From Chaetoceros tenuissimus (taxonomy: Eukaryota; Bacillariophyta; Thalassiosirophyceae; Chaetocerotales; Chaetocerotaceae), in the NCBI GenBank assembly GCA_021927905.1, contig BLLK01000049.1, positions 177,073 to 241,072 of the forward strand: a stretch of DNA of 64,000 nt, given 5' to 3'. The position numbers were made by a program, and so were the translations under genes. Positions within the stretch are counted from its first letter, which is position 1. Every line of letters starts with the position of its first letter. The notes under the pieces are model-generated. The model saw only the letters and a list, made by a program, of their open reading frames with translations. It did not search any database and was not told the DNA's origin. This document shows positions 39,176 to 63,994 of the stretch, piece by piece.

Positions 39176-41142
39176 TTACTGTTTTGACCAAGCGATTAGA
39201 AAGGGACGAAAAGCGAGGCTATAGTGGACGAATATGAATATTCTCTCAGTACCTTTGCCATTTTTCCTCAGATAAGAAATACCTTCCTGCCATTGGTCAA
39301 CATGATTTTCTTCTTCAAAATACTTCAAAAGCTCATTATCAAAGCTTGAGTTCTTTCCGACAAAAGATTCAAGTAATGCTAGGTCTTTCTTGCTCCGGAG
39401 TAGATCGAACAATCTTTGCTTTGACCAATCAGAAGATTTTTCATACAGGGACAGAAGTTGATGTGGTTCTTTCACTGACCCATATGATTGCTGTAAATAT
39501 TTTCCATGTTCAAATAAATAAGAGAAACCCTCAAACCAAAGTTCGTCGCGGCTATGATCTATCAAGAAATACTTGAATAGCTCATTATCGAAGCTTGAGT
39601 TCTTCCCAATAAAAAATTCAAGAAGTACAGGCTCTTTCTTGCTTCTCAGTAAATCTAACAATTTCTGCTTGATGACATCACATATATGTTCAAAGTCAAA
39701 TGTACAGCCATTGTCTACGAGATACTTGAATTTATCTAAACTCCAGCTATTATCACAATAGATTACGTTTTGGTATTCACGTCCACGACTCGTCCAAGGG
39801 CAACCATCTTCATGAGCATACTGAATCATCTCCAGACTGCCATATCCTACAATAAATGCCATGATTTCATCGTCCCATGGAACAGAGATACTACGCAGGA
39901 AGCGAATGATATCAAATTGCTGTGCAATATTCCTACTATGATGAAAAAAATACCTCATTCCTTCTCTGAATTCAAAGCCCAAATCATGCAAGAAACGATA
40001 CAGTTCAATCTTTCCTGTTTGCCTTAGAGCATCCTCACATTCAGGAGCATTAATATTGTACCCTTTATCAGAGCAAAAACGAATCATATCTAATGATTCG
40101 CTAGAAATGGCATAATACATGACAGGAAATCTATCGCCAAAATCGTGTCCTTGATTCAACAACCACTGAAGAACTTTAACATCTCCAAACTTTACTGCAT
40201 AATCGCAAAAGTGAAAAGGCAGATAATAACCACGATGTCTATAACGATGGCCACGTTCACTTGGTTCAAAATAAAACCCAAACATTTTGTGATTCGAATC
40301 CATACAACCAATATCTTTTAACCACTCCAACATTTCTAGCTGTCCAAACTTAATTGCAGGTTTGACATATCTTTGTAACCCCTCATGAAAGTTCAGTTCT
40401 TCATGAAGATACTTAAGAACATGTAAATGCCCCCTGGCTACAAGTTTAGAAAGTTTGACTGCTCCGTCTTCTGTATAGTAAAAATCAGCAGTGAAATCAT
40501 CTTCAGATAATTCATTTCCACATTCACTCTTGTAAGAGCCATCATAGCATTTATAAATCATTTTCTTCTTCATTTCAACAAGAGTAGACAAATCATAACC
40601 ATCTTTTACAGCAGCTCGCAGAATATCTAGATTACCATTCACTGCAGCTGCTTTGAACAACTCATTTTTTCTTTTGAAGATCTGCACAGGTCTTTGATAC
40701 AGTGATTGACTAGTTTGACAGATGTCGCCATTTCAAGATATGCTGTCTCTCGTCCACAATATAATTGTTCTCTTTCTAAAGATGCTCTTTGCATGAAAGC
40801 TGCTGTGTAGGCTATATAGAGTTTTTTGGATATCAGAGCTAAAACTCCATAATGGCCTCTACCGACAAAAGACAAACAATTCTGCAGCACTTCATCTGGT
40901 AGAGAGTACAGAGCTTTCGCCTCTAAAAAAATTTTGACTGCGTCCCCTACATGCACTTGCAATTCTTGGAGTTCAACAATATAATTCATTTCTGGAAACT
41001 TCTTGTACAATTTTTCTAAATTGGATGAAAGATGTGTTTCTCTTTCACTGATGATATCACACTCTGTTCTTTTGCGATCATCGAGCGAATCACAATTTGA
41101 AGTTCTCGCCCTCTTTTTCTCAGATGATTCTTTTGAATTCAT
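39176..41142 (-). CDS. F-box-like/ankyrin array gene 1 (frame break)
   Basis: Start chosen at ATG 41142 (MNSKESSEKKRART). The N-terminal part has the family helix (FPEMNYIVELQELQ) and an F-box-like LPDEVLQNCLSFVG at residues 81-94, but a shorter linker than its paralogues. The frame breaks at the A6 run 40665-40670, between CRSSKEK and NELFKAAAV; one added A joins them exactly as in the paralogues. Ankyrin-like units follow (LQRYVKPAIKFGQLEMLEWL; FCDYAVKFGDVKVLQWLL; EMIQYAHEDGCPW). A module LLEFFIGKNSSFDNELFKYF is present twice. The C terminus after YLRKNGK looks out of family, so the end may be degraded. Predicted role: SCF ubiquitin-ligase adaptor (inference). Confidence 0.75.
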
Positions 41143-41462
41143 TCTTGCCTCTTTTATATGTAAAGTATTGAATGTTAGCAAATTGCAGAGATAACTTAAT
41201 AGCTAACAGTGTAAATGTGTATGTGGTTGTGATTGCTTTGTAATAAGAGTGACAACCCTACTTTTGCTTGTCACTAGAGATCTCATAATGTAGAATGTAG
41301 TTTCATTGGGACGAGAGACTGTCTGTCAGTTGTCAGAAAAATGCGCGAAAATCCCAATGACGAGCTATGAGGAAATTAATGTATGAAGTAACACAATTTT
41401 AACTATTCTGAATTACATAGACTATTTTTAATTAAAATGCTAGAATCATCTTGAAAATTTAT
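41143..41462. other. Intergenic with array promoter motif
   Basis: 320 nt upstream of array gene 1. It contains the CCAATGACGAGC element listed separately. Confidence 0.4.
41354..41365 (-). promoter_or_regulatory. Array element CCAATGACGAGC, gene 1
   Basis: Plus-strand reading CCAATGACGAGC, preceded by gcgcgaaaatc, 212 nt upstream of the ATG. It combines a CCAAT box with a TGACG half-site. Confidence 0.5.
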
Positions 41463-43733
41463 TTACTTCTTTGCCAATAGATAAGAGACGCCTTCTTGCC
41501 AAGGGCCATCATTACTGCGTTCTTGCTGAAAATACTTTAACAGCTCTTTATCGAAAGTCCGATCCTTTCCAGCAAAACATGCAAGTAATGAAACGTCTTT
41601 CTTGCTCATCAGTAGATCAAACACTCTTTTCTTGATCCAAGCAGATGATTGCTCATGTTGGAAATGTTGATGGAATGCTTCTTTCATTGGCCTACATCTT
41701 TGAATATCTTTGCCATGTTCCAATAAATACGAAACACCTTTAAAGAAAATTGCGCCAAACCTGTCATCATTCAAGAAATACTTGAAAAGCTCATTATCAA
41801 AGCTTGATTTCTTCCCAACGACAAATTCGAGTAGTTCTACATTGAGTCTCCTTGCCAAACCAACATTGCCTTTCCTTACCAAAACTTCAATCAATGTGTC
41901 CTTCATCCAATCAGATGATCGTTCTTTGAAAGAATAATAATAGAATAATTCTTCCATTGACCTAAAGGAATTCACAATATCTTTGCCGTTTTTCAATACA
42001 AAAGAGATACCCTCAAACCAACGACCGCAAATGCTTTGATCTATGCAATACTTGAGAAGGACATGATCGAAGCTTGAGTTCTTTCCAACGAAAAACTCAA
42101 GCAAAGCAAGATCTTTCTTGCTTTTCAATACCTCTACCAACCTTTGTTTTGTCAGGTCATTTGACTGTTCATAGTTAAATGTGCATCCATTGCCTACTAG
42201 ATATTCAAGTTTATCAAAATTTTTGAATTCGACATGCTTTTTCCCATTTGAAGAAATACTGATATCAGCTTCTTTCATAAGAATGTTGTATTCATGTCCA
42301 CTCCAAGGGCAACCGTCTTCGTGAGCATTCTTCATCATTTCTACAGAACCGTGTTTTGCAATGCGTGCCATAATATAAAGATCCCATGGAACAGCGATAC
42401 TACGCAGGAAATTGATGATATCAAGTTTTGGTATATGGAGGACCCAATTTATTAATCTTCCTCTTCTCCTGAACTCAAATCCTAAATTATGCAACAAACG
42501 ATAAACTTCTATATTTTCTGTGTCAGTTATTGCAGTTTCAACTCCGTAATGATCAAAGCTGTAACCTTTGTCAAAGCAATACTGAATCATTTCCAATGAA
42601 TTGCTTCCAATGGCATTTCTCATGACGGCCCATTCTTCAAAGTCTTCTTGTCCATGATTGTGAAGCCATAGTAGACTTTGGACATTGCCACACCTAACTG
42701 CATGATCACATAACGAAGTTCTTTTGAAATTTCTCTCGTATAGATCATAATAAAATTGATGCATATTGTCATATTCACTCATACAACCAATACTGTGCAA
42801 CCACTCCAATATTTCTAGTTTGCCATACTCTATTGCTGGTTTAACATACCTTTGAAGCCCTTCATGATAATGAAGTTCTTCATGAAGATACTTGAGAACA
42901 TGCAAATGGCCTCTCGCTACAATCTGAGAAAGTTTGACTACTCCTCTGTAACCATCATCATATATCTCCTCCTGTTCATCTGTATAGTAAAACTCATGAG
43001 CAAAGTTATCAAATTCTTCGTCGGTCTCATATCTTTGTTCTTCATCAGTATAAGATCCATCATAGCATTCGTAAATTGTTTTCTTCTTCATTTCCAGTAA
43101 AGCATTCAAGCGATACCCTTTTTTTACAGCAGCTCGCAAGATATCTAAATTCCCATTTACCGCTGCTGCTTTGATCACCTCATTTCTTTCCTCCGAAGAT
43201 TTGCACAGGTTCTCAAGACAGTGAATTGCGATTTTAACAGAAGTTGCCATTTCAAGATATGATGTCATTTGTCCAATATATATAGTCTTTTCCTGCCAGG
43301 GAAATGCTCTTTGCATAAAAGCTGTAATGAAGGCTTGTTGTAGCTTCTTGCATGTTAGACCTACTAATCCAAAATGGCCTTTACCTACATACGATAAACA
43401 TTTGTTCAGCACTTCGTCAGGTAAAGAATAAAGCGGAACCGATTCATTTTTGTGTTTCTTAGCCTTTTCTGCCTCCTCTACTTGTGTCATGAGAAGGTCT
43501 TTATACTTTTCGATGGCAGTGCCTACGTGCGATTGGACTTCTTCATAATCAATAATGAACTTTGTCTCTGGAAATTCATTGCACAAAGAAGATAACTTGT
43601 CAGATAATTCCTTGGCCCTTTTCGTGGTATCCTCAAAAGATGCCATAGTATCACTTGTCGTCATTACATTTATGCTTCGTTTCTTGTTCACTGTTTCCAG
43701 GTCGGATGACTGCTTCTTTATATTTGTGTTCAT
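41463..43733 (-). CDS. F-box-like/ankyrin array gene 2
   Basis: 756 residues from ATG 43733 (MNTNIKKQSS). The frame is open further upstream but crosses the promoter motif, so the later start is preferred. Layout: basic N terminus, helix FPETKFIIDYEEVQ, Lys/Glu coiled coil, F-box-like LPDEVLNKCLSYVG (104-117), then NEVIKAAAVNGNLDILRAAV and about ten ankyrin-like units (RYVKPAIEYGKLEILEWL, MMKNAHEDGCPW). The C-terminal module 'LLEFFVGKNSSFD...GISFVLKNGKDI' is present about three times, more than in any other member. It lacks the 'DDVKWAYENGC' tail of genes 3, 4 and 6-9. Closest to genes 1 and 5. Same predicted adaptor role. Confidence 0.82.
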   Translation of the reverse strand: MNTNIKKQSSDLETVNKKRSINVMTTSDTMASFEDTTKRAKELSDKLSSLCNEFPETKFIIDYEEVQSHVGTAIEKYKDLLMTQVEEAEKAKKHKNESVPLYSLPDEVLNKCLSYVGKGHFGLVGLTCKKLQQAFITAFMQRAFPWQEKTIYIGQMTSYLEMATSVKIAIHCLENLCKSSEERNEVIKAAAVNGNLDILRAAVKKGYRLNALLEMKKKTIYECYDGSYTDEEQRYETDEEFDNFAHEFYYTDEQEEIYDDGYRGVVKLSQIVARGHLHVLKYLHEELHYHEGLQRYVKPAIEYGKLEILEWLHSIGCMSEYDNMHQFYYDLYERNFKRTSLCDHAVRCGNVQSLLWLHNHGQEDFEEWAVMRNAIGSNSLEMIQYCFDKGYSFDHYGVETAITDTENIEVYRLLHNLGFEFRRRGRLINWVLHIPKLDIINFLRSIAVPWDLYIMARIAKHGSVEMMKNAHEDGCPWSGHEYNILMKEADISISSNGKKHVEFKNFDKLEYLVGNGCTFNYEQSNDLTKQRLVEVLKSKKDLALLEFFVGKNSSFDHVLLKYCIDQSICGRWFEGISFVLKNGKDIVNSFRSMEELFYYYSFKERSSDWMKDTLIEVLVRKGNVGLARRLNVELLEFVVGKKSSFDNELFKYFLNDDRFGAIFFKGVSYLLEHGKDIQRCRPMKEAFHQHFQHEQSSAWIKKRVFDLLMSKKDVSLLACFAGKDRTFDKELLKYFQQERSNDGPWQEGVSYLLAKK

Positions 43734-44180
43734 TCTTCCTTTTCCTGTATTTACAAATAGAAGTTGCGAAGAGTTTATATAAGCATATAATAGTACCTTA
43801 CATTTGCATGTTACATACCTCATCGACACACACCTGGCTGCTGTATTATGTGTGAGATGTGAGAGGCAATAAAAGGCGCGAAATACCAATGACGAGCCAA
43901 CGAAATTTAGGAAGCGGGAACGAGAAGAATAGCTATTTATAAAAGAAACAAATTGTTTATAAGAATAAAATAAACAACACAAAAGTAGGTACGCGAAACT
44001 CTCGACTCCAACCTTACGGCACCACGTGGTGTTGTTAACTCAAATGAGGCTGATGATTCCCATTGACATTGCTCTTGCATGTCATTGTGGCATCGAATCA
44101 AATTGGTTTGACCCGCATGACTTAAAGTTCCATTGATATTATTTCTTTTAGCTTTGTACCTCTTCATTATTTTTACATTT
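43734..44180. other. Intergenic with array promoter motif
   Basis: 447 nt; only the CCAATGACGAGC element and AT-rich sequence noticed. An antisense ORF of 83 codons here has no homology I can see. Confidence 0.4.
43886..43897 (-). promoter_or_regulatory. Array element CCAATGACGAGC, gene 2
   Basis: Identical 12-mer to that of gene 1, again after gcgcgaaa, 153 nt upstream of the ATG. Confidence 0.5.
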
Positions 44181-46397
44181 CTATGCAACTCTCATTTGCC
44201 GAAAAAGACAAAGTCTCTTACGATTGTTTATGTTTTCTCCATGTCCACCATAAGAATGTTCGAAGCACATTTCCAAAGCTTGGCTCACATGATCCTCTTT
44301 TTCCTTTTCGGAGTCAAATGTGAAACCTTCATCTACAAGAGACTTCAATTGAAGATTGTCTATTGCAACTAAGTCTGATGTCAAATGAATAAAACGATTC
44401 GACCGACTCCATTTAGGAAGCTCCATCATAGGTAGCATGTCATTCTCCTCAAAGAAATGACAATTTGCTTTCCATTCATCTCTTTCTCTGATTCCGCGAT
44501 GTTTCCATTCCTCTTCCACATAAGGAAAAGAGCCTCCTCCCTTACAACCATTTTCATAGGCCCATTTCACATCATCCAAATTATTGAAGCATGCTATTCT
44601 TGAAAGTAGGTGAGTTTTTCCAGACGGATCTAGACACCATGGCAAGCCTTGACTGTGGAAATATTTAAGAAAGTCCATACGATAAGAAAGTTTATTGAAC
44701 AATTCTTCGATGGATTTCAAGTTCTTTGCGGTATTGTTATTTTCCAACATATAACTGATACCTTCAGTCCAGAAATTACCCTGTGTGATCTCTTCTAAAA
44801 GGTTTCTGTCGAAGTTTGAGTCCTTCCCAACAAAAAAATCAAGTAGTACAAGTTCTTTTTGTTTGCGAAGAAGTTTCACTAGTTTGCTAATAAACCAGGA
44901 GCTAGAATATTTGAAGTCGAATTTGCAACCATTGTTCATGAGGTATTTGAATTTATCCAAACTCCATCCTTTATCAGACTCTAACAGTACTTTATATTCA
45001 TCTCCGTGAGCTGTCCAAGGGCAACCATTTTCATGAGCATACTTCATCATCTCTAGAGTGCCTTTTGCCACGATATCTTTCATAATTTCATCATCCCATG
45101 GAATAGAGATGCTATGGAGGAATTTGATGATTTCAAAGTTTTCCGCAATGTCATTACTATAACCAATCCATTTTTTCATTCTTCCTCCGAATTCATGGCC
45201 TACTTCGTGCAACAAACGATACAATTCTACACTTTTTCTTCTCATTGTTCCATAATAATTTTCTTTGTAAGCATTTACATCGTATCCCTTTTCAGAGCAA
45301 AACCTTATCATTTCGAACGAATTGCTACAAACTGCATAGTCCATTATAGAAGAATCCAAATAAAAGTCGAAGTCTTGATCTAAAAGCCATTTCAGCACTT
45401 CAACATTTCCGCTCCTGACAGCAAAATCGCAAAAGTAGAATGATTTATATTCATCTGCATCACCATTATCATGAACACGATTCAATTCGTCATCTTCATC
45501 TAAAAGGTCAATACTTTGTAGCCACTTCAATATTTCCAACTGACCATACTGGATTGCCGGTTTGATGTACCTTTGTAACCCCTTACGATAATTGAGTTCT
45601 TCGTATAAATATTTGAGTACATGCAAATGACCTCTTTCTACAAGCTTAGAAAGTTTGACTGTGTTCTCTTCATTTTTATTTGCAATGTAAATGTCGAGAG
45701 CACAGTCTTCCAATTCATATTCAGGAACATCCCAGTCAATTGCACTACGTTCCATGTAAGTATCATTGTGGACATCGTGAACTTCAAACTTTTTCATTTC
45801 AATTAATGGAAACAAATCGTAGCCAAATTTTACAGCATTTCTTAGAATATCAATATTTCCATTGACTGCTGCTGCTTTGAGTATCTCATCTTTTTGTTTC
45901 ATAGATTCACAGAGGTCACTAAGACAAAAATTAGCAATTTTCACCGATGTCGCCATTTCAAGAAAAGAGGTTTCTCTTCCAAAGTGTTTTGCATAAGCTT
46001 CATTGAGGCTCTTTGATGCCAGACCTACTAAAGCATAGTGACCTATACCGACATATGACAAGCAATTCTGGAACAACTCATCTGGAAGAGAATAAAGCGG
46101 CACTGATTCCTTGCTGTTGATCATTACTTTTCGCTTCTTAACTTCGCCTTTCTCCATGTCCTTCATTGTTTCGTCTTTATATTTTTGTACAGCTGTCTCT
46201 ATCGCAACTTCCTGCAACTTTTCCGAATCAAGAATGTACTTCATTTCTGGAAATTCTTCGCACAAAGAAGATATCTTTCTCGATAGTTCTTTGGCTCTTT
46301 TAGAGACATCAATAGACGCAAATGCATCACTTTTTGAAGTGATCTCTGCCCTCGCTCTTTTCACCGGTGACAAGTCGGAAGGTTCTAATTGAGTCAT
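44181..46397 (-). CDS. F-box-like/ankyrin array gene 3
   Basis: 738 residues from ATG 46397 (MTQLEPSDLSPVKRARAE). Helix FPEMKYILDSEKLQ, a Lys-rich coiled coil, then an F-box-like LPDELFQNCLSYVG (104-117, with F in place of VL's L). The ankyrin-like region begins DEILKAAAVNGNIDILRNAV and includes RYIKPAIQYGQLEILKWL and MMKYAHENGCPW. It has the long C-terminal tail with FLKYFHSQGLPWCLDPSG, DDVKWAYENGCKGG and the final SYGGHGENINNRKRL. Forms a closely related pair with gene 4. Its upstream region lacks the CCAAT/TGACG element. Adaptor role is inference. Confidence 0.82.
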   Translation of the reverse strand: MTQLEPSDLSPVKRARAEITSKSDAFASIDVSKRAKELSRKISSLCEEFPEMKYILDSEKLQEVAIETAVQKYKDETMKDMEKGEVKKRKVMINSKESVPLYSLPDELFQNCLSYVGIGHYALVGLASKSLNEAYAKHFGRETSFLEMATSVKIANFCLSDLCESMKQKDEILKAAAVNGNIDILRNAVKFGYDLFPLIEMKKFEVHDVHNDTYMERSAIDWDVPEYELEDCALDIYIANKNEENTVKLSKLVERGHLHVLKYLYEELNYRKGLQRYIKPAIQYGQLEILKWLQSIDLLDEDDELNRVHDNGDADEYKSFYFCDFAVRSGNVEVLKWLLDQDFDFYLDSSIMDYAVCSNSFEMIRFCSEKGYDVNAYKENYYGTMRRKSVELYRLLHEVGHEFGGRMKKWIGYSNDIAENFEIIKFLHSISIPWDDEIMKDIVAKGTLEMMKYAHENGCPWTAHGDEYKVLLESDKGWSLDKFKYLMNNGCKFDFKYSSSWFISKLVKLLRKQKELVLLDFFVGKDSNFDRNLLEEITQGNFWTEGISYMLENNNTAKNLKSIEELFNKLSYRMDFLKYFHSQGLPWCLDPSGKTHLLSRIACFNNLDDVKWAYENGCKGGGSFPYVEEEWKHRGIRERDEWKANCHFFEENDMLPMMELPKWSRSNRFIHLTSDLVAIDNLQLKSLVDEGFTFDSEKEKEDHVSQALEMCFEHSYGGHGENINNRKRLCLFRQMRVA

Positions 46398-46683: not shown

Positions 46684-48990
46684 TTATCTTGTTCTTCTAG
46701 GGTACCTTGGTTCTTTTACTCTCATCTGCTGGAAAAGAGCAAGTCTCTTGCGATTGTTGATGTTTTCTCCATGTCCGCCATAAGAGTGTTCGAAGCACTT
46801 TTCCAAGGCTTGGCTTAGATGAGCCTCTTTCTCCTCTTCAGAGCGAAAGCTCAAACCTCCATCCACAAGACATTTCAATTCAGAATTGTCTATTCCAACT
46901 AAATCTGATCGAAGCTCATCTTCCCCCTCATCCTCATCCTCTAGAAGATTCATATTAGGTAGCATGTCATTCTCCTCAAAGAAATGACAATTCGCTCTCC
47001 ATTCATCTCTCTGTCTAATTCCCTTCTCTTCCCACTCCTCTTTTATGTAAGGAAACGATTGATCCCCTTTGCAACCATTTTCATATGCCCATTTCACATC
47101 ATCCAAATCATTGTAGCATGCTATTCTTGAAAGAAGATGAGTGTTTCCAGATGGATCTTTACACCATGGCAAGCCTTGACTGTGGCAATATTTCACGAAG
47201 TCTATGGCATGAGAAAATTTATTTAACAATTCTTCGATCGACTTAAATTTCTCAACATCTTTGCCCTTTTCCAAAATACAACAGATTCCTTCACACCAAA
47301 GGTCTTCTCTAGTGCTATACTGTAGAAAATACTTAAAAATCTGATTATAAAATTTTGAGTTCTCCCCAATGAAATATTGAAGCATTGCAAGATCTTTCTT
47401 CTTTCTCAATACTTCCATTAAAGATCGCTTGGTGAAATCACAGGGATATTCATGGTTAAATGTGCAACCATTTTCAATGAGAAATTGCAACTTCTCAAAT
47501 TCATCAAAGTTGACATGCATTTTTCCACCTGAAAACATACCAGTTCCATTATTTTGCCATACCAGAAGGTTTGCGTATTCCTGTCTGTCGCTTGTCCATG
47601 GGCAACCATCTCCATGAGCATACTTCACAATCTCAAGGGTGCCATATGCTGCAATGTCTTTCATAATTTTATCATCCCATGGAATGGAGATACTACGAAG
47701 GAACTTTAGGATATCAATTTCTTGCTCGATACAATATCCATTAACCCATGTATTAATCCCTCCTGTGAATTCAAAGCCTAGCTCGTGTAAGAAACGATAC
47801 ATTTCTACACTTTTTGCATCTTTGATATCATAACGATGCTCGCTCTCTTCAATACTGTATCCCTTATCAAAGCAAAATTGTATCATCTCTAATGATTTAC
47901 TGGAAATTGCATTACCCATGACACAATGCTCGTCATCAATTTTATATCCTTGGTCCAAGAGCCAGTGAAGCACTTCGACGCTTCCGCTCTTGACTGCACA
48001 GTCGCAGAAGTAGAATGGTTTAATCTCACATTCATCAGAATCATAATGATCACGATTCATGACGTCATCTTCATTTAAAGGGTCAATACTATGTAGCCAT
48101 TTCAAAATTTCGACTTGGTCATGCTGAATTGCTGGTTTGATGTACCTTTGCAACCCCTTACGATAATTGAGTTCCTCGTGAAGATACTTGAGTACATGCA
48201 AATGACCCCTCGCAACAAGTTGAGAAAGTTTGACCTGCGTTTTCATCATGTACGTGCTCGTCTTATTCTCACATGTGCTCATCCCATCCTCATCTGTGTA
48301 GTAAATATCAACATCATAAGGTTCGTATTCCCCTATCGTTATACCATTTTCGCCCTCTTCCTCATTCGCCAAATAACAATCTTCATATGCATCCTTCTTC
48401 ATTTCAATCAATGGAAACAAGTCGTAGCCATCTTTCACAGCAGCTTTTAAAATTACGACATTCCCATTTACTGCTGCTGCTCTGAACAGCTCATCCTTCT
48501 CATTTAAACATTTACAGAGATTGTCGAGACAATGATATGCTAGTTTGACAGATGTCGCCATTTCAAGATATGCTGTGTCTCGTCCAAATTCCTCTTTGTA
48601 AAAATTATGGAGCTTCTTGGATGTCAGGGCAACTGATCCATAATTGCCTCCACCGATATATGATAAACAAATTTGTAGCACTTCATCAGGTAAGGAATGA
48701 AGAGGTGACATTTCCGCTTTGCTATGTTTAGCTTCTTCCATCTCCGCATTCTTTACCATATCATCTTTATACTTTTGCACAGCAGCCTTTATCAAACTAT
48801 CTTGTAGCTGAAAAGAATCGAGAATATACTTCATCTCTGGAAATTCATTGCATAAAGAAGATATCTTCTCAGATAGTTCGTTTGCTCTTTTATTGACGTC
48901 GAAAGAGGCTAGAGAATCACTAGTGTTCTCCATTGTTGTTTTCGCTCTTTTCTTCGCTGGTGCAGACTTGCAAGCTTCAGTTGAACTCAT
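46684..48990 (-). CDS. F-box-like/ankyrin array gene 4
   Basis: 768 residues (MSSTEACKSAPAKKRAK). F-box-like LPDEVLQICLSYIG at 100-113, then DELFRAAAVNGNVVILKAAV, RYIKPAIQHDQVEILKWL, FCDCAVKSGSVEVLHWLL and IVKYAHGDGCPW. The tail matches gene 3 (FVKYCHSQGLPWCKDPSG, DDVKWAYENGCKGD, SYGGHGENINNRKRL) with an extra acidic insert (EDEDEGEDE). Intact with no frame breaks. Like gene 3 it lacks the shared promoter element, so the pair was probably duplicated together and is regulated differently (inference). Confidence 0.84.
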   Translation of the reverse strand: MSSTEACKSAPAKKRAKTTMENTSDSLASFDVNKRANELSEKISSLCNEFPEMKYILDSFQLQDSLIKAAVQKYKDDMVKNAEMEEAKHSKAEMSPLHSLPDEVLQICLSYIGGGNYGSVALTSKKLHNFYKEEFGRDTAYLEMATSVKLAYHCLDNLCKCLNEKDELFRAAAVNGNVVILKAAVKDGYDLFPLIEMKKDAYEDCYLANEEEGENGITIGEYEPYDVDIYYTDEDGMSTCENKTSTYMMKTQVKLSQLVARGHLHVLKYLHEELNYRKGLQRYIKPAIQHDQVEILKWLHSIDPLNEDDVMNRDHYDSDECEIKPFYFCDCAVKSGSVEVLHWLLDQGYKIDDEHCVMGNAISSKSLEMIQFCFDKGYSIEESEHRYDIKDAKSVEMYRFLHELGFEFTGGINTWVNGYCIEQEIDILKFLRSISIPWDDKIMKDIAAYGTLEIVKYAHGDGCPWTSDRQEYANLLVWQNNGTGMFSGGKMHVNFDEFEKLQFLIENGCTFNHEYPCDFTKRSLMEVLRKKKDLAMLQYFIGENSKFYNQIFKYFLQYSTREDLWCEGICCILEKGKDVEKFKSIEELLNKFSHAIDFVKYCHSQGLPWCKDPSGNTHLLSRIACYNDLDDVKWAYENGCKGDQSFPYIKEEWEEKGIRQRDEWRANCHFFEENDMLPNMNLLEDEDEGEDELRSDLVGIDNSELKCLVDGGLSFRSEEEKEAHLSQALEKCFEHSYGGHGENINNRKRLALFQQMRVKEPRYPRRTR

Positions 48991-49461: not shown

Positions 49462-51437
49462 CTATTTACCATTTTGTACTATATAGGAAACACCTTCATT
49501 CCAATGTTCTCCATAGCAATACTTAGAAAGCTGTTGATCAAAGCTTGTATTCTTTCCAACAACTAACTCAAGTAATGCAACTTCTTTCTGTTTACAAAGC
49601 AATTTCATCAAACTTTGTATGTTGCAATTATTGAATTTTTCATAGTCAAACTTGCAGCCATTACGAATGAGGTACTTGAATTTGTCAATAACCCATCCAT
49701 TGTCGTAATATAAACAATTGTATTCATCTCTTCGACTTGTCCAAGGGCAACCATCTTCACGAGCGCACTGAATCATTGCAACAGTACCATATTGCACAAT
49801 ATATTTCATGATTTCATTATCCCATGGAATAGAGATACTGCGAAGGAATTTCATAATATCAAAGTATTCAGCGATTCTATATGAACAACAGATCCACTCT
49901 TTCATTGTTCCTTTGAACTCAAAGCCTAACTCATGTACTAAACGATAGACTTCCATATTTTCTGATGCTTTGATTGCATTCCTAAATTTGCATTCATCAC
50001 CGCGAGTCGTCCAAGGGCAGCCATCTTCACGAACATACTGAATCATTTCAACAGTGCCATGTTCCACAAGTTCTGTCATGATTACATTATCCCATGGAAT
50101 AGAGATACTGCGAAGGAATTTGATAATATCAATATTACTCGCACAATTTCTACTGATCCACTCATTCATTGTTCCTTTGAACTGAAAGCCTAACTCGTGT
50201 AACAAACGATAGACTTTTATATTTCTTGTTTGATTGCTTTCTTATTATCGTAATAAGAAAACTCACAGATTCCTTCTCTACCAAAACAATATCGGATCAT
50301 TTCTAATGAATTAGTGCGAATTGCATCACTGAGACGAGGATATGGAGCGAATCCATTATTTGATAGCCACTCAAAACTTTCAAGATTAACACACTTGAAT
50401 GCATAATTTTGAAAAGAGAAACTCTTGTACTCTCTTTTATTTGTATCATAATACAATTCATGAAGGTCATCATCTTCTTCCATGCAACCAATGTCATGTA
50501 ACCACTTCAATATTTCGAGCTGACCATACTTGATTGCAGGTTTACAATACCTCTGCAATCCCCATTTATAATTGAGTTCTTCATGTAGGTATTTGAGAAC
50601 ATGCAAATGACCTCTCGACACGATTTGAGAAAGTTTGATTGTATAACTAGGTCGATAATCACATTCATCTGTGTAGTAAAAATCAATAGCATACTGTTCC
50701 CAGTCCTCTTCATTACAGTCATCGAAGCCAAACTCTAAATCATCCTCATCAAAGTAATTACCATCTGCATTGTAAATTGTGCATTTCTTTATTTCAACGA
50801 GAAGAGACAAATCATAGCCATCTTTTACAAGAGATCGCAAAACATCTAGATTACCATTCACTGCTGCTGCTTTCAAAATATTCTTTCTTTCTTCCGGATA
50901 TTTACATAGATTGTCAAGAAAGTAGTTCACTACATTGACAGATGTCGCAACTGCAACATAATTTGTTATCCGCCGATATTCATTAGTGTAGATTCTGTGT
51001 AGCTTCTTCGATACGAGACCTAATACTCCATAATGGCCTTTACCTACAAACGATATGCAATTCTGTAATACTTCATCCGGTAGAGAGTAAAGTGGAACTG
51101 ATTCCTCTTTTTCAACTTTGCGTTTTTTAGCTTCATTCGCCTCCACAAGTTGCACTTCTTGCAACATTGTATCTTTGTACTGTTGTACAGCTGTCTTTAC
51201 TACATCTGCTTGCAACTTTTCAGACGCAAGAATGAATTCCATCTCTGGAAATTTCTTATACAAAGAAGATAACTTTTTTGATAATTTCTTTGCTCGTTTG
51301 CGAACATCAATAGAAGCTAATAGAGTACTAGCTGTTGAGAGATCAGATGTACTTGTAGCGATGTTTGCTCCTCTTGCTCTTTTCTTCTTCGCCGTTGCCA
51401 GCTCGGAAGATCGCTCCTTGCTCTTGTTTAGATCCAT
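49462..51437 (-). CDS. F-box-like/ankyrin array gene 5 (frame break, internal duplication, short tail)
   Basis: Start at ATG 51437 (MDLNKSKERSSELATAKKKRAR). F-box-like LPDEVLQNCISFVG at 119-132, then NILKAAAVNGNLDVLRSLV and ankyrin-like units. The frame breaks at about 50224-50231; one added A gives KKAIKTRNIKVYRLLHEL, matching paralogues. Beyond it, a stretch of 90 codons is present twice with an exact 270-bp period (HELGFQFKGTMNEW / HELGFEFKGTMKEW; EDGCPWTTRG / EDGCPWTSRR). The protein stops after GVSYIVQNGK, as in genes 1 and 2, without the WAYENGC tail. It may be decaying or carry an assembly error. Otherwise same family and predicted role. Confidence 0.72.
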
Positions 51438-51609: not shown

Positions 51610-51688
51610 ATGTAGTCATAAGGATTAATAGCTGTCTAGACGACGTACTTCATGTATGTCATTGAAAATAATGAAGTAGACCTATTTC

Positions 51689-54248: not shown

Positions 54249-56543
54249 TCACAGCTCTCTAACCCCCATTTGTTGAAAAAGAGCCAGTCTTTTTCTTTTC
54301 TCACTATTTGCTGTTGAATAATACATACATTCTTCCAGAGTTTTCTTGATAGTACTATCTTTCTCCAATTGTGAGCGAAAAGCAAAACCACGATCGACTA
54401 GTGCTTTCAATGCAGATACGTTCATTTCGAAAAACATAGAGTCACGAGAGGGATATTTTTTCTCAAGCTGAGCAAATTCATTCATAGGAACGAGTATTCC
54501 ATTCTCTTCCAAGAAAGGACGACTCGGCTTCAAATTGCTCGCATGTCTGAATTTAGACTCGATATGTTTATCTTTTACGCAAGGCCCTCCTCCGGTGCAA
54601 CCATTCTCGTATGCCCACCTCACATCATCCAGTTCATTGTAACATGCTATTCCCACTAAGAGACGATTATTTCTTGAAGTATCGAGACACCAAGGTAAGC
54701 CTAAGCTATGGAAATATTTGAGCCCATCTATTCTCGGAAATATTTTAAACACCTCTTCGATGGAATGGAAGTTTTGAATCTCTTTGCCTTTCTCCAATAT
54801 AAAAGTGACACCTTCAAGCCAAGGTTTAAAATAATGCGACAATCCAATACATTCGACCATTTTCTTCAAGAGCGCATTATCTAAGGAAGAATTCTTTCCA
54901 ACGAATACTTCAAGCACTTCTAGATCTTCCATATCACGAAGCCTGTCTATAACATAGCCATTATAATCCATTTGACAGCCAATTTCCAACATGAGGTAAT
55001 TGAATTTCTCATAACTGAACGTTTCACTTCTGAGAATAGCTGCTAGCAATCCTGAGCTCGACCAAGGACAGCCGTTTTCATGCGCATAACGAATCATTTC
55101 TATAGTACCGTATGTTACAAAGTCCCTCATCACTTGTTTCTCCCATGGGATTGAAACACTTCTAAAAAACTTGATGATTTCAAAAGCATCTCTAGGACGA
55201 CTTTCGTCATACCAATTTGACATCGTTTTGAAATCAAAGCCTAGCTCGTGCACAGTGCGATAAACATCAAGATTGTTTGTTCCTCGAATAACTTTCTCTA
55301 TTTCCAAAGCCTCAAAATTATGTCCCAGATCAAAACAGAGTCGAATCATTCCTACAGACTTGCTGCAAATCGCATCTTTCATAACATGAGCATCAACCTC
55401 GAACTCAAAATCGTTATCTAGCAGCCATTCGAGCGCTTCAACGCTACCACACTTGACCGCGAACGAACAAAAATTTAGAGGTCTATAGTCACCCAGCGAT
55501 CTTCTACCACTTGTGTCCAGATAATATTTATGCATTGCGTCAGATGTGTTCATACAACCAATACTATCTAACCACTCCAAAATTTCAACATTTCCATACT
55601 GGATAGCCGGTCTGCAATACCTTTGTAGCCCCACACTATAGTTCAGCTCTTCATAAAGGTACTTGAGTATGTGTATATGACCTCGTGCTACAATCTGAGA
55701 AAGCTTGACTTTCTTTCTTACGCCCCAAGAGTTTTCCATATCCTCATCAGTACAGAAAACTTCCTTAGAAATCTCTTCAAGCCTATATTCACAGTACGGG
55801 CCATGCCATTCTGCATCATACTCTCCATATGTCCCATCTTCATGTTCGTACACAGTTTCACTACTCATCTCAACTAATGGGAACAAATCGTAACCTTGCG
55901 AGGTTGCATGACGTAAAATATCTAGATTTCCATTCACTGCCGCTGCTTTGAACAACTCATCTTTTTCTTCTGAAGTCTTACAAAATACTTTGAGACAGTA
56001 ATTTACTAGTTTGACAGATGTAGCCATTTCAAGATACTTTGTCTTTTTTCCGAACCCTGCAACGTAGGATTTACGAAGCTTCTTCGATACTAGACCTACT
56101 ACTCCAAAATGGCCTTTGCCCACATATGATAAGCAATTCTGTAGCACTTCATCAGGAAGAGAATGAAGCGGTACTGTTTCTTCTTCTTGGTACATAAGGG
56201 CCTGGGCTCTACGCTTCTTCTCTTCTTCTATTCGCTGCTTAGCCTCTTCCGCCTTTGCGTGCAAAATTATGTCTTGTTTGTATTTCTTGACAGCGACCTC
56301 TACACCTGCCTGCAACTGTTGTGAATCAATAATGTACTTCATCTCCGGATTTTGATTGTAGAAAGAAGATATCTTGTTTGCTAAATCCGTTGCTCTTTTG
56401 TTCACATCAAATGACGCAATTGCTTGCAGAGCATTTGTCTGGCCTACTTTTGTAGATCTCTTCATACCGCTGCTACTAGCGGAGAAGATCATGTCATCTG
56501 TTCTTGCTCTTTTCTTTCCCGAAATGTCACTGTTCGAGCTCAT
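54249..56543 (-). CDS. F-box-like/ankyrin array gene 7
   Basis: 764 residues (MSSNSDISGKKRARTDDMIF). Helix NPEMKYIIDSQQLQ, a strong Lys/Glu coiled coil (KAEEAKQRIEEEKKRRAQAL), F-box-like LPDEVLQNCLSYVG at 129-142, DELFKAAAVNGNLDILRHA, then ankyrin-like units (RYCRPAIQYGNVEILEWL; FCSFAVKCGSVEALEWLL; MIRYAHENGCPW). The tail has KYFHSLGLPWCLDTSRN, DDVRWAYENGCTGG and ends EKRKRLALFQQMGV. Very close to gene 9. Intact. The N terminus carries a nuclear-type basic cluster. Confidence 0.84.
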   Translation of the reverse strand: MSSNSDISGKKRARTDDMIFSASSSGMKRSTKVGQTNALQAIASFDVNKRATDLANKISSFYNQNPEMKYIIDSQQLQAGVEVAVKKYKQDIILHAKAEEAKQRIEEEKKRRAQALMYQEEETVPLHSLPDEVLQNCLSYVGKGHFGVVGLVSKKLRKSYVAGFGKKTKYLEMATSVKLVNYCLKVFCKTSEEKDELFKAAAVNGNLDILRHATSQGYDLFPLVEMSSETVYEHEDGTYGEYDAEWHGPYCEYRLEEISKEVFCTDEDMENSWGVRKKVKLSQIVARGHIHILKYLYEELNYSVGLQRYCRPAIQYGNVEILEWLDSIGCMNTSDAMHKYYLDTSGRRSLGDYRPLNFCSFAVKCGSVEALEWLLDNDFEFEVDAHVMKDAICSKSVGMIRLCFDLGHNFEALEIEKVIRGTNNLDVYRTVHELGFDFKTMSNWYDESRPRDAFEIIKFFRSVSIPWEKQVMRDFVTYGTIEMIRYAHENGCPWSSSGLLAAILRSETFSYEKFNYLMLEIGCQMDYNGYVIDRLRDMEDLEVLEVFVGKNSSLDNALLKKMVECIGLSHYFKPWLEGVTFILEKGKEIQNFHSIEEVFKIFPRIDGLKYFHSLGLPWCLDTSRNNRLLVGIACYNELDDVRWAYENGCTGGGPCVKDKHIESKFRHASNLKPSRPFLEENGILVPMNEFAQLEKKYPSRDSMFFEMNVSALKALVDRGFAFRSQLEKDSTIKKTLEECMYYSTANSEKRKRLALFQQMGVREL

Positions 56544-57018: not shown

Positions 57019-59280
57019 TTACTTTATTTCCATTATTTCAATTGATAGCAAAACGGCTAAAATTTTTCTATTCTCAGTGCAAAAATCTTTGCAGCAGTTT
57101 CGAAATGCCACTGCGGTCACCAACTGTTTCTGAGCAGCAAAACTGTACTTGTATCCTTTTTTCGCAAGAAAAGTTGTCAAATTCAAGTCAAGGTGAAGTT
57201 TGCAATGGTCCAAATCAGTCTCCTCCAAAACTTTACTATGGTTCTCTTCACATAGAAACAGGTCATGGTACATAAAGTCATCACCAACGTCTTGAAAATC
57301 AAAGCCAAGAATACCATTTTCTTGAAGAAAGTCGTAGTTTGCATACCATTCTGATGTTCTCATCATATACCCTTCGCCCCATTGCTCTTCATTGAAAGGA
57401 GCAGGGGATCCACCCCTACAGCCATTTTCAAACGCCCATTTCACATTTTCAATGCCCAAACTGCAAGCAATCCTGCACAAGAGCTCATTTCCTTTTTCCT
57501 TATTTCGAGTCCAATGACAACCTTGACAAATTCGTAGATATTTGATAAAGTCCATGTTTGGGTGATGAGGAGGATAGACAACATCTTCAATAAAGATTTG
57601 AATGTCTTTTCCTTTTTCAAACATAAATTGGACACCTTCTAGCCACACTGGTTCGTATTTCTTCCCTGTTTCGACAAGTTTATATTGTTCAAACATCATT
57701 TCAGATAAATATAATAGTCTCCCTGCTTGTTCAGTTGTGCGAGGTTCTATAATATCCTTCAAAATTATATTATCAAGCTGAGCATTCTTTCCAACAAAAT
57801 AATCAAGTAGACCTAGATCTTTCTTGTTCCAAAAGCGAAAAGGTTCCTGTCTACTTGGGCGAAATTCATTCAATAAAAAAGACTCCCAAGAAGTATTGTT
57901 GGCAATAAGATATTTGAGTTTTTCTACATTTTGATCGCTTTCAACTAGGAATCTGGGTATAACCTCATTATAGTTCGGCATAGCCAATCCATTTTCATGA
58001 GCATATTGAACCAATTCAAAGCTTCCACGACAAAACAATAATCTCATAACACCCTCAGGCCATTGAACTCCTACGCTACGGAGAAATTTTATGATTTCGA
58101 GGAATTCCCAAGATATTTCAGACTCTTCTCGGTAGTGCAATTTCGTCAATATTCTGTGCATACTATTGTCACTATGAAATTCTAAACCTTTGTCATAACA
58201 GAAACGAAAGACGTTGAGACTCTCCGTTCTAGCTACAGCTGCCTCACTGCTATTGTCGAATTCATTGCCCATTTCAAGACAATATTCAATCATGTCAATG
58301 GATTTACTCGCAATCGCAGAATTAATATCCAATGTTGGCTGGAGAAAAACATAATCATTGATGAATTTCAAATCCTGAACCCATTTCAGGATGTCCAAAC
58401 TTCCACTAGTGATACAAAAGATTTTCAATGAGTAATCGTCCAAAGCGTTGATGCTCTTTAGCCACTCTAAAATCTCAAGTTTCCCATGCTGAATCGCAGG
58501 TTTACAAAATGCCCGAGATCCGAAATTATAACCAAGTTCTTCGTGAAGGTACTTCAAAATATGCAAATGCCCATTAGCAACTATTTTTGTACTTATATAA
58601 CCATCAAACAAATGTTCTGGACCAAAAGTGCATTCTTCATAATCTTGCCCTTTTTCTTTTGAACAAAGTATAGGTATTAAGTCGTATCCACTCGATGTTG
58701 CATATCGAAGAACATCAATCTTGCCATTCACTGCTGCTACTTTGAATATCTCATCTTTTTCTTCCAAACTTCTGCAGAGGTTTCCTACGCAATATCTAGC
58801 CGTGTCCACAGAGGCTGCTGCTGATTTATAGCTTGTCAATGTTGCCTCTTTACTTTCATATTCTTCCTTGTAAGCCTTGCACAGCTTCTTCGACACTTGA
58901 GCTACTAAGCAATGGTTCTTTCCTCCGACATAGGACATACATCTTCTTAGAACCTCATCGGGTAGAGAATACAGCGGTGATTTCTTTGCATTCAATTGAA
59001 CATTTGCTTCCGCTTCAACTGCATGTCTATACTGTTCAACTGCGTCCTTTACGTTAGCTTGTAACTTCTCACATTGCATAATGTACTTCATTTCTGGATT
59101 CTCTTTATAGAAAGCATGGATTTTCTGAGATAGTTTATCTGCTCTTTCTTGGACATTACTAGGAGCACAAGACAAAGTACTTGACGATACGACTGCAACA
59201 GCATCCTCGTAAGAAGTGTTTGTAAGATGTGTTCTTGCTTTTTTACTGATTGGCTCAGCTGATGCATCTTCTCCACTCAT
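57019..59280 (-). CDS. F-box-like/ankyrin array gene 8
   Basis: 753 residues (MSGEDASAEPISKKART). Helix NPEMKYIMQCEKLQ, F-box-like LPDEVLRRCMSYVG near 106-119, KEEYESKEATLTSYK, then DEIFKVAAVNGKIDVLRYA and ankyrin-like units (AFCKPAIQHGKLEILEWL; SIDMIEYCLEMGN; FELVQYAHENGLA). The tail has VKWAFENGCRGG and ends with AFRNCCKDFCTENRKILAVL. Clear duplicate of gene 6 across the whole length. Intact. Confidence 0.82.
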   Translation of the reverse strand: MSGEDASAEPISKKARTHLTNTSYEDAVAVVSSSTLSCAPSNVQERADKLSQKIHAFYKENPEMKYIMQCEKLQANVKDAVEQYRHAVEAEANVQLNAKKSPLYSLPDEVLRRCMSYVGGKNHCLVAQVSKKLCKAYKEEYESKEATLTSYKSAAASVDTARYCVGNLCRSLEEKDEIFKVAAVNGKIDVLRYATSSGYDLIPILCSKEKGQDYEECTFGPEHLFDGYISTKIVANGHLHILKYLHEELGYNFGSRAFCKPAIQHGKLEILEWLKSINALDDYSLKIFCITSGSLDILKWVQDLKFINDYVFLQPTLDINSAIASKSIDMIEYCLEMGNEFDNSSEAAVARTESLNVFRFCYDKGLEFHSDNSMHRILTKLHYREESEISWEFLEIIKFLRSVGVQWPEGVMRLLFCRGSFELVQYAHENGLAMPNYNEVIPRFLVESDQNVEKLKYLIANNTSWESFLLNEFRPSRQEPFRFWNKKDLGLLDYFVGKNAQLDNIILKDIIEPRTTEQAGRLLYLSEMMFEQYKLVETGKKYEPVWLEGVQFMFEKGKDIQIFIEDVVYPPHHPNMDFIKYLRICQGCHWTRNKEKGNELLCRIACSLGIENVKWAFENGCRGGSPAPFNEEQWGEGYMMRTSEWYANYDFLQENGILGFDFQDVGDDFMYHDLFLCEENHSKVLEETDLDHCKLHLDLNLTTFLAKKGYKYSFAAQKQLVTAVAFRNCCKDFCTENRKILAVLLSIEIMEIK

Positions 59281-61487: not shown

Positions 61488-63815
61488 TCAATTCGAAGAA
61501 GACGATTGGTTAACACCCATTTTTTGAAAAAGAGAAAGTCTTTTGCGTTCATTGGCGTTGTTACTGACGAAACGGTTCATACACTTCTCCAAAGCTTTTT
61601 TGGTAATACGTTTCTTCTCCGATTGCGAGCGGAAGCCGTAACCACGCTCTACTAAAGATTTCAACATAGAATAGTCAATTGTGAAAAACATCGAGTCACG
61701 AGAAGAATATTTTGCCTCGAGCTGAACAATCTCTTTCTCTGGAATATTCATTTCAATATAAAGCAATCCATTCTCTAGAAAAAAGATACGATTCGCGTTC
61801 CATTTCTCTCTCTTACTAGAGTCAAAGAACTCGTGTTTGATATGATCTTCTTTGATATGTTCTTCTTTCACAGAAAGTCCTCCATTGCAACCATTTTCGT
61901 ATGCCCACTTCACATCATCCAGATTATTGTAACATGCAATTCCCGATAGGAGACGATTATTTCTTGAGGTATCGAGACACCAAGGAAAGCCTAGACTATG
62001 GAAATATTTGAGTCCATCTATTGTTCGACATATTTCAAACACTTCTTCGATGGACTGGAAGTTTTGAATATTTTTTCCATTGTCCAATACAAAAGTAAAA
62101 CCTTCAAGCCAAGGCGGTGTAGAGTAAACTCGTCCATCACATTCGACCATACTTTTGAAGAGTGCATTGTCAAAAGTAGAGTTCTTCCCTACAAAGATTT
62201 CAAGTAAATCTAGATCATTCTTTCCACGAAGACTATCTACAACAGAGCGATCATATTCGATTTTGCAACCAATTTCCATAAGGTAACTGAATTTTTCATG
62301 ACTAAAATCATTTCTGCAGAGTAGGGCATAGATCACTCCAGAGCTTGACCAAGGGCAGCCATTTTCATGAGCAAATTGAACCATTTCCAAGGTACCATAT
62401 TGCACAAAATCTCTTATCACTTGTTCCTCCCATGGGATTGACACACTTCTGAGAAACTTTATGATTTCAAAAGCATCTTTAGGACGACTTGCATCATACC
62501 AATTTGACATTTTTTTAAAAACATAGCCTAGTTCGTGCACAGTGCGATATACATCAAGATTCTTTGTCCCTTGAATTGCTTCCTCAACTCCACCTGCCTC
62601 AAAGTTATATCCTAGATCAAAACAGAATTGAATCATTCCTACAGACTTGCTGCGAATCGCATCTTTCATGACAGGACTATCAAACTCAAACTCAAACTCA
62701 AAATCTTTATCTAGCAGCCATTCTAGTGCTTCAACGCTACCACACTTGACCGCGAACGAGCAAAAATTGAGAGGTCTATAGTCACCCAAAGATCTACAAT
62801 CACTTTTGTCCAAATAAAATTTGTGCATTGCGTCGTTTGGATTCAAACAACCAATACTATCTAACAACTCCATTATTTCAACATTTCCATACTGGATAGC
62901 TGGTCTGCAATATCTTTGTAGCCCCACACTAAAGTTGAGTTCTTCATAAAGATACTTGAGAATGTGTAAATGACCTCGTGGTACAAGCTGAGAAAGCTTC
63001 ACTTTCTTTTTTACGCACCAAGAGTCTTCCCTATCCTCATCAGTAAAGTAAACTTCCTTAGAAATCTCTTCAAGCCTCCATTCAGAGTACCGTCCATGCC
63101 ATTCGTCATCATATACTCCAAATGTTCCATCTTCATGTTCGTACACAGTATCACTTTTCATTTCAACTAAAGGAAACAAATCGTAACCTTGCGAGACTGC
63201 ATGACGTAAAATATCAAGATTCCCATTCACTGCTGCTGCTTTGAATATCTCATCTTTCTCTTCGGCAGTCGTATATAGATTTTTGAGACAGTAGTTTACG
63301 AGTTTGATAGATGTCGCTATCTCAAGATACTTTGTCTCTTTTCCGAATACTGCAATGTAGGCTTTGCGTAGCTTTTTCGATGCTAGAGCTACTAAACCGT
63401 AGTGGCCTTTACCTACATATGATAAGCAATTCTGTAGCACTTCATCAGGAAGAGAATACAGAGGCACTGAAGCTTGAGCTCTGTTCTTCTTCTCTTCTTC
63501 CATTCGCTTCTTAGCTTCTTCTGCCTTTGAGAGCTCGATCATGTCGTCTTTGTATTTCTTGACAGCGTCATCTACACCTGCGTGCAACTTTTGTGAATCA
63601 ATAATGTACTTCATCTCTGGAAATTCGCTATAGAAAGAAGATATCTTATTTGATAAAGCCATTGCTCTTTTATTGGCATCAAAAGGTGCAAGATCTTGCA
63701 AAGCACTTGTCTCGCCTCCCTTCATAGAGTTCATACCACTGCTGCTACTAGCGGAGAAGATCATGTCCTCTGTTCTTGCTCTTTTCTTTCCCGACATGTC
63801 ACTGTTCGAGCTCAT
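61488..63815 (-). CDS. F-box-like/ankyrin array gene 9
   Basis: 775 residues from ATG 63815 (MSSNSDMSGKKRARTEDMIF); the frame extends five codons further only through a GTG. Helix FPEMKYIIDSQKLH, coiled coil (KAEEAKKRMEEEKKNRAQ), F-box-like LPDEVLQNCLSYVG at 122-135, DEIFKAAAVNGNLDILRHA, ankyrin-like units (RYCRPAIQYGNVEIMELL; FCSFAVKCGSVEALEWLL; MVQFAHENGCPW). Tail with KYFHSLGFPWCLDTSRN, DDVKWAYENGCNGG and ending ERKRLSLFQKMGV. Duplicate of gene 7, intact. Predicted SCF adaptor (inference). Confidence 0.84.
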   Translation of the reverse strand: MSSNSDMSGKKRARTEDMIFSASSSSGMNSMKGGETSALQDLAPFDANKRAMALSNKISSFYSEFPEMKYIIDSQKLHAGVDDAVKKYKDDMIELSKAEEAKKRMEEEKKNRAQASVPLYSLPDEVLQNCLSYVGKGHYGLVALASKKLRKAYIAVFGKETKYLEIATSIKLVNYCLKNLYTTAEEKDEIFKAAAVNGNLDILRHAVSQGYDLFPLVEMKSDTVYEHEDGTFGVYDDEWHGRYSEWRLEEISKEVYFTDEDREDSWCVKKKVKLSQLVPRGHLHILKYLYEELNFSVGLQRYCRPAIQYGNVEIMELLDSIGCLNPNDAMHKFYLDKSDCRSLGDYRPLNFCSFAVKCGSVEALEWLLDKDFEFEFEFDSPVMKDAIRSKSVGMIQFCFDLGYNFEAGGVEEAIQGTKNLDVYRTVHELGYVFKKMSNWYDASRPKDAFEIIKFLRSVSIPWEEQVIRDFVQYGTLEMVQFAHENGCPWSSSGVIYALLCRNDFSHEKFSYLMEIGCKIEYDRSVVDSLRGKNDLDLLEIFVGKNSTFDNALFKSMVECDGRVYSTPPWLEGFTFVLDNGKNIQNFQSIEEVFEICRTIDGLKYFHSLGFPWCLDTSRNNRLLSGIACYNNLDDVKWAYENGCNGGLSVKEEHIKEDHIKHEFFDSSKREKWNANRIFFLENGLLYIEMNIPEKEIVQLEAKYSSRDSMFFTIDYSMLKSLVERGYGFRSQSEKKRITKKALEKCMNRFVSNNANERKRLSLFQKMGVNQSSSSN

Positions 63816-63982
63816 TAGATCTGCTTCCACTATGCACTAGATATTCCTTGAAAAAGAAAGATAGAAAAAATTACTGATATGGTATAAACTAATGATTAAA
63901 TGACAGGAATAGTTGAGAAGTCTCGTGTGCATTTTTGCTGTGGCGGGGAGAGCAGATGAGATGTGTGCAAACTGGCCTCATT

Positions 63983-63994
63983 CCAATGTCGTGC
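63983..63994 (-). promoter_or_regulatory. Array element CCAATGTCGTGC, gene 9
   Basis: Within the block gtgtgcaaactggcc ... attccaatgtcgtgctttcag shared with gene 7; 168 nt upstream of the ATG, at the window edge. Confidence 0.5.

What the first reader, a model, noticed from the sequence alone, without database searches (positions are those of the whole stretch)
39176..63994. Nine-gene array of F-box-like/ankyrin proteins
Nine paralogues in one orientation share a basic N terminus, a coiled coil, LPDEVL...CLSYVG and degenerate ankyrin units. The LPDEVL segment followed by helix-forming residues fits an F-box. With variable ankyrin repeats behind it, the proteins look like SCF ligase adaptors diversifying their targets, comparable to expanded F-box families in plants or ankyrin/F-box host-range factors. 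I do not recognise it as a described diatom system.
Basis: partly seen in the sequence, partly recalled or inferred. Interest (0 to 1): 0.7.

Follow-up and report, generated by a model that had tools for sequence, protein, structure and literature searches.

The report
Diatom F-box/ankyrin gene array
Nine neighbouring gene copies in what looks like a diatom genome each pair a probable F-box, the plug that connects a protein to the cell's waste-tagging machinery, with a recognition scaffold, a pairing that reviews call very rare in cellular organisms.

Summary
Nine paralogues lie on the minus strand at 39176-63815: seven uninterrupted ORFs of 738-786 aa and two with broken frames and no C-terminal part. 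A plus-strand MYND gene interrupts the array. The F-box reading is supported by sequence: 9 of 9 LPDE segments match Pfam F-box (best E 7.3e-6), 0 of 9 shuffled controls do, and LYSLPDE is the most conserved heptamer. Scores are near Pfam's cut-off (2 of 9 ORFs exceed it). The fold is unconfirmed: three short helices at pLDDT about 40-55, no F-box among 12 Foldseek matches. The rest is an ankyrin-type solenoid. Eight of nine carry a nuclear-import-like motif. Sister-pair dN/dS is 0.36-0.47: purifying selection, positive selection not shown; change is by duplication, module turnover and decay. Best reading: nuclear SCF substrate receptors joining an N-terminal F-box to ankyrins, a combination two reviews call unobserved or extremely rare in cellular genomes. 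SKP1 binding and targets are inferred. The species is probably Chaetoceros tenuissimus or a relative, on indirect evidence.

The parts
39176..41142 (-). gene 1: F-box/ankyrin paralogue, frame broken near 40660 (pieces 40639-41142 and 39176-40573), C-terminal part missing; probable pseudogene
   Evidence: no remnant downstream
40747..40914 (-). F-box segment of gene 1
   Evidence: the ORF scores above Pfam's gathering cut-off (23.1 against 20.5 bits)
41463..43823 (-). gene 2: uninterrupted, 786 aa; C-terminal part differs from the other intact genes and holds repeated copies of one module
   Evidence: (families D8, D10)
43269..43436 (-). F-box segment of gene 2
44181..46397 (-). gene 3: uninterrupted, 738 aa, sister of gene 4 in the seven-protein tree
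45933..46100 (-). F-box segment of gene 3
46684..48990 (-). gene 4: uninterrupted, 768 aa
48538..48705 (-). F-box segment of gene 4
49462..51437 (-). gene 5: frame broken near 50175 (pieces 50217-51437 and 49462-50169), internal module duplication, C-terminal part missing; probable pseudogene
   Evidence: (families D3, D17)
50928..51095 (-). F-box segment of gene 5
51689..53914 (-). gene 6: uninterrupted, 741 aa, sister of gene 8
53480..53647 (-). F-box segment of gene 6 (the only one without an F-box match in the whole-ORF scan)
54249..56543 (-). gene 7: uninterrupted, 764 aa, sister of gene 9
56004..56171 (-). F-box segment of gene 7
57019..59280 (-). gene 8: uninterrupted, 753 aa
58810..58977 (-). 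F-box segment of gene 8
   Evidence: the ORF scores above Pfam's cut-off (21.6 against 20.5 bits)
61488..63815 (-). gene 9: uninterrupted, 775 aa; modelled by AlphaFold (solenoid from about residue 274)
63297..63464 (-). F-box segment of gene 9

Best explanation
The array encodes F-box/ankyrin proteins that most likely serve as nuclear substrate receptors of an SCF (SKP1-CUL1-F-box) ubiquitin ligase. An N-terminal basic motif would carry the protein into the nucleus, a helical stretch follows, the F-box docks onto SKP1, and the long ankyrin-type solenoid behind it binds the target, which is then ubiquitylated. Duplication of single genes and probably of a two-gene block, gain and loss of C-terminal ankyrin modules, and decay of some copies change the set of receptors. 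Shown here: paralogy, the F-box sequence match, the ankyrin part, the basic motif, purifying selection and the duplications. Inferred: SKP1 binding, nuclear location, ligase activity, and the existence of distinct targets.
For: 9 of 9 LPDE segments match Pfam F-box at E 1 or better (best 7.3e-6) and 7 of 9 match F-box-like; 0 of 9 residue-shuffled segments match an F-box model. In whole ORFs 8 of 9 match F-box at E 0.11 or better, 2 of 9 above the gathering cut-off. For gene 9 the match covers profile positions 2-33 of 43 with equal lengths on both sides. LYSLPDE is the most conserved heptamer in the alignment of the seven intact proteins (0.93; 592 windows without a gap in gene 9); a poxvirus review says that most F-box contacts come from the first helix and the loop before it (PMC4353913, passages). 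Three short helices are modelled there. Ankyrin models pass the cut-off in 7 of 8 ORFs, and the model matches ankyrin structures, among them the cullin-2 ligase receptor FEM1. The basic motif occurs in the first 70 residues of 8 of 9, against 3 of 18 other window ORFs (three short ORFs were left out). dN/dS is 0.37 (genes 7/9), 0.36 (3/4) and 0.47 (6/8), from the dN and dS. Codon usage of the seven intact genes is that of 15 other window ORFs.
Against: F-box scores are near the cut-off, and the nine rows are relatives, not independent tests. In the longer N-terminal stretch 8 of 9 match at E 0.1; gene 6 has no F-box match as a whole ORF. A profile search of solved structures with the F-box rows listed 32 sequences, best E 0.74, the best being a kinase and most of the rest MAP kinase 1, none an F-box protein; single segments gave one unrelated match and none. 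The F-box region is modelled at pLDDT about 40-55, and none of the 12 Foldseek matches of the segment is an F-box protein. No SKP1 or cullin could be sought, since no genome is held. For a single protein, composition alone gives the basic motif in 5-46% of shuffles.
Confidence: 0.6

Rival explanations
1. The proteins have a genuine F-box that binds SKP1 but do not act as ligase receptors: the ankyrin solenoid is a nuclear scaffold or gene regulator and the F-box serves assembly, transport or self-turnover.
For: Basic motif in 8 of 9. A review notes ubiquitin-independent activities of poxviral proteins with these two domains (PMC9414399 abstract). No substrate is known.
Against: N-terminal F-box followed by a repeat domain is the usual layout of cellular SCF receptors (PMC4353913 passages).
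Confidence: 0.2
2. The LPDE segment is not an F-box but a helical cap of the ankyrin solenoid special to this family, resembling an F-box by chance or convergence.
For: Marginal Pfam scores, low-confidence models, no F-box among the 12 Foldseek matches, no F-box among solved-structure sequence matches.
Against: Only F-box models match the nine segments, out of 24736 models; shuffles give no F-box match; the conservation peak sits on the loop and first helix of the F-box.
Confidence: 0.13
3. The array came from an integrated giant virus or another foreign source with ankyrin expansions.
For: Bodo saltans virus has 148 ankyrin genes, mostly in directional tandem (PMC5871332 passages).
Against: No relative in viral contigs in four scans or in prokaryote genomes in one. 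GC3 0.351 against 0.333 and RSCU correlation 0.91 with 15 other window ORFs. The scans rest on short peptide patterns and can miss distant relatives.
Confidence: 0.05

Closest known systems
Cellular SCF F-box receptors (FBXW and FBXL classes; names recalled)
   Same: F-box near the N-terminus with a repeat-type recognition domain behind it (layout: PMC4353913 passages).
   Different: The repeats are ankyrin, not WD40 or leucine-rich. [quoted passage not shown] From recall and untested here, some fungal and protist proteins are annotated with both domains.
Poxviral ankyrin/F-box (PRANC) proteins
   Same: Ankyrin recognition domain plus F-box, expanded by duplication.
   Different: Opposite order (ankyrins first, F-box at the C-terminus) and an F-box truncated to two helices (PMC9414399 and PMC4353913 passages). 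No PRANC match among the families listed here.
Legionella AnkB and Orientia Ank effectors (named only; nothing fetched)
   Same: F-box or SCF interaction combined with ankyrins, per titles and abstract starts in the listing.
   Different: Proteins of intracellular bacteria; the present genes look native to their genome by codon usage.
FEM1 and ASB ankyrin receptors of cullin-2 and cullin-5 ligases
   Same: Ankyrin solenoid as target receptor; FEM1 and ASB11 are among the 50 of 729 Foldseek matches shown.
   Different: They join cullins through other boxes (VHL box recalled; SOCS box), not an F-box.

Membership tests
F-box proteins (Pfam PF00646) | F-box sequence recognised by the family model | tested here: met
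   9 of 9 segments match at E 1 or better, 0 of 9 shuffles; but only 2 of 9 whole ORFs exceed the gathering cut-off and one has no match
F-box proteins (Pfam PF00646) | Three-helix F-box fold | tested here: inconclusive
   three helices in place at pLDDT about 40-55; no F-box among 12 Foldseek matches
SCF substrate receptors | Binding to SKP1 | not testable with these tools
   no genome held, no complex prediction offered
SCF substrate receptors | Separate recognition domain, usually behind an N-terminal F-box | tested here: met
   ankyrin-type solenoid behind the F-box
SCF substrate receptors | Ubiquitylation of a bound target | not testable with these tools
   bench experiment needed
Ankyrin-repeat proteins | Ankyrin repeats recognised by family models and fold | tested here: met
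   7 of 8 ORFs above cut-off; ankyrin structures among the Foldseek matches, although the three best are PPR solenoids; the profile search of solved-structure sequences was weak, best E 0.3 to a designed ankyrin protein
Poxviral PRANC proteins | C-terminal PRANC/F-box behind ankyrins | tested here: not met
   F-box lies before the ankyrins; no PRANC match listed
Giant-virus ankyrin families | Relatives in viral genomes | tested here: not met
   four scans of viral contigs without a confirmed relative; distant relatives could be missed

The most novel reading that the evidence does not exclude
A cellular, non-viral lineage of F-box/ankyrin SCF receptors whose tandem birth-and-death gives a diatom a changing set of nuclear recognition proteins, used to mark foreign proteins, for instance those of its viruses, for destruction.
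Probability: 0.12. Interest if true: 0.8.

Novelty: new variant of a known kind. Interest (0 to 1): 0.5.

Why it matters
Reviews treat the coupling of F-box and ankyrins as essentially a poxviral and bacterial device (PMC4353913, PMC9414399; passages). A native algal family with the cellular layout (F-box first) would give that fusion a eukaryotic counterpart, and could link the reported ankyrin abundance of C. tenuissimus (PMC8613185) to a biochemical function that one binding assay would test.

Tried and rejected
Searches that led nowhere: relatives in viral contigs and prokaryote genomes; PHROGs on three of the proteins (one match at E 0.065); NCBIfam on the nine F-box-plus-following segments (best E 0.055, taken as chance); solved-structure sequence searches; Foldseek on the F-box model. 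No tRNA was found in the window.

Considered and rejected: positive selection on the ankyrins (7 of 21 intact pairs: dN/dS below 1 in every region where it could be computed, one region giving no dS; one 60-codon window of genes 4/7 has pN 0.48 against pS 0.46). A clean contrast of constrained F-box and fast ankyrins is only partly there: the proportion of changed non-synonymous sites is lower in the F-box than behind it in 6 of 7 pairs but higher in genes 3/4, and F-box dN/dS exceeds that of the part behind it in genes 6/8, 2/4 and 4/7. Foreign origin: judged unlikely on codon usage. Sequencing error as the cause of the two frame changes is not excluded, but both genes also lack the C-terminal part. 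A family-specific promoter motif: CGTCATTG is enriched but also sits beside the TPR genes.

Full report
What is there. ORF listing with the standard code shows nine paralogues on the minus strand between 39176 and 63815. Seven are uninterrupted ORFs of 738-786 aa; genes 1 (39176-41142) and 5 (49462-51437) are each split by a frame change and lack the C-terminal part, with no remnant beside them by tblastn. The same tblastn of the seven intact proteins found no copy outside the array and none on the plus strand at E 0.01. Between genes 8 and 9 lies a plus-strand gene with a MYND finger (59910-61349), without a second copy in the window.

Anatomy. From the N-terminus: a short basic motif K-K/R-x-K/R in the first 70 residues in 8 of 9, against 3 of 18 other window ORFs (in shuffles of single N-termini it appears with frequency 0.05-0.46, so each case alone is weak and the recurrence is the evidence); a conserved helical stretch with invariant P-E; a linker of variable length; the LPDE segment; and an ankyrin-type region. 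In the alignment of the seven intact proteins the most conserved heptamer is LYSLPDE (0.93 mean pairwise identity), followed by LKYLYEE of gene 9 in the ankyrin part (0.88); over 42 columns the ankyrin stretch 280-321 (0.68) is ahead of the F-box stretch 116-157 (0.61).

Is it an F-box? Each of the nine 56-residue segments matches Pfam F-box at E 1 or better, the best at 7.3e-6, and 7 of 9 match F-box-like; the only other model listed, F-box_4, is also of F-box type. The same segments with residues shuffled give no F-box match (0 of 9) and one match to an unrelated model at E 0.15. In whole ORFs 8 of 9 match, with 2 above the gathering cut-off of 20.5 bits (genes 1 and 8), gene 5 just below (20.1), and gene 6 without a match. 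In the longer N-terminal stretches 8 of 9 match at E 0.1. Against this, profile and single-sequence searches of solved structures gave no F-box protein; AlphaFold on eight and nine rows gives three short helices in the right place at pLDDT about 40-55; and the 12 Foldseek matches of the segment, best E 2.2, include no F-box protein. I take homology to the F-box as likely (about 0.8, my judgement) and the fold as unconfirmed.

The rest. Ankyrin models pass their cut-offs in 7 of the 8 scanned ORFs that reach into this region. The model of gene 9 has mean pLDDT 67.5; 40 of the 50 ten-residue blocks from 271 to 770 are at 70 or more. Of 729 Foldseek matches 50 were shown; the five at E 0.001 or better are three PPR proteins, an ankyrin-B structure and tankyrase, and further down are FEM1, ASB11 and RNase L. 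The profile search of solved-structure sequences with the full alignment was weak: five matches, best E 0.3. A regular-expression count gives units about 26-34 residues apart where they follow directly, with insertions between others.

Evolution. In the tree of the seven intact proteins genes 6/8, 7/9 and 3/4 are sister pairs (100/100, 100/100, 98/98); in a second tree of N-terminal stretches with all nine, 6/8 stays at 100/100, 7/9 falls to 90/89 and 3/4 is unresolved. Order along the DNA is 6, 7, 8, 9, so one duplication of a two-gene block would explain both pairs, and shared stretches upstream of 6 and 8 (23 bases) and of 7 and 9 (43 bases) agree; dS differs (0.68 and 0.47), so separate events are not excluded. 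dN/dS over the aligned length is 0.37 (7/9), 0.36 (3/4) and 0.47 (6/8), and 0.29-0.42 in the four wider pairs examined, computed. Internal duplication of an ankyrin-region module is seen in genes 1, 2 and 5, and gene 2 has a different C-terminus. The array changes by duplication, module turnover and loss rather than by visible positive selection.

Origin. No relatives were confirmed in four scans of viral contigs and one of prokaryote genomes; these scans need conserved short peptides and can miss distant kin. Third-position GC (0.351 against 0.333) and codon usage (correlation 0.91) of the seven intact genes match 15 other window ORFs. No whole genome is held. The window also holds LNR/Notch, MYND, HMG-box, BTB, SPX/EXS and TPR genes. 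The paper on the Chaetoceros tenuissimus genome reports LRR5, MYND, HSF and ankyrin domains as more abundant there than in three other diatoms, and Notch among further domains notably higher than in other organisms (PMC8613185, section 9 and passages). That makes this species or a relative a reasonable guess, no more.

Function. The layout (F-box near the N-terminus, repeat domain behind it) is the usual one of cellular SCF receptors, and F-box contacts come mostly from the first helix and the loop before it (PMC4353913, passages), which is where conservation peaks here. I therefore favour SCF substrate receptors, probably nuclear, at 0.6. SKP1 binding, location, activity and targets are inferences.

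Known or new. Six paper searches naming diatoms or a diatom genus and four on related themes listed no title or abstract start that describes an F-box/ankyrin family in diatoms; I saw 20 of 31 rows, 10 of 46 and 15 of 18, and the library holds open-licence papers only. [quoted passage not shown] I recall, without a test here, database annotations of both domains in some fungal and protist proteins, so the rarity may be overstated. I file this as a new variant of a known kind, with the F-box fold and SKP1 binding still to be shown.

Noticed in passing
27606, 30646, 31004, 33374, 33633, 36730, 41355, 43887, 54045, 56909, 59413 (motif starts): CGTCATTG occurs 11 times in the window against 1.83 expected (0 of 100 shuffles reach 11), all outside the 31 ORFs considered and 9 of 11 within 800 bases upstream of an ORF start, including five of the nine family genes and both TPR genes; it may be a general promoter element of this genome.
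   Followed up: partly
59910-61349: MYND-finger gene in the opposite orientation inside the array, head to head with gene 8 across 629 bases, so the two may share a promoter.
   Followed up: partly
27796-30450 and 31156-33183: Two adjacent similar ORFs with a shared N-terminal part; the second was scanned and is full of TPR repeats, of the kinesin-light-chain type by recall.
   Followed up: no
12953-14575 and 15463-16743: Neighbouring ORFs with a nearly identical HMG-box stretch; the first was scanned and matches HMG-box.
   Followed up: no
37255-37866: Short ORF whose second half is canonical ankyrin repeats (Ank_2 E 1.3e-28), unlike the degenerate repeats of the array; its first half resembles a prolyl-hydroxylase end by recall.
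   Followed up: no
3674-5053: ORF with an LNR/Notch match, a domain reported as numerous in C. tenuissimus.
   Followed up: no
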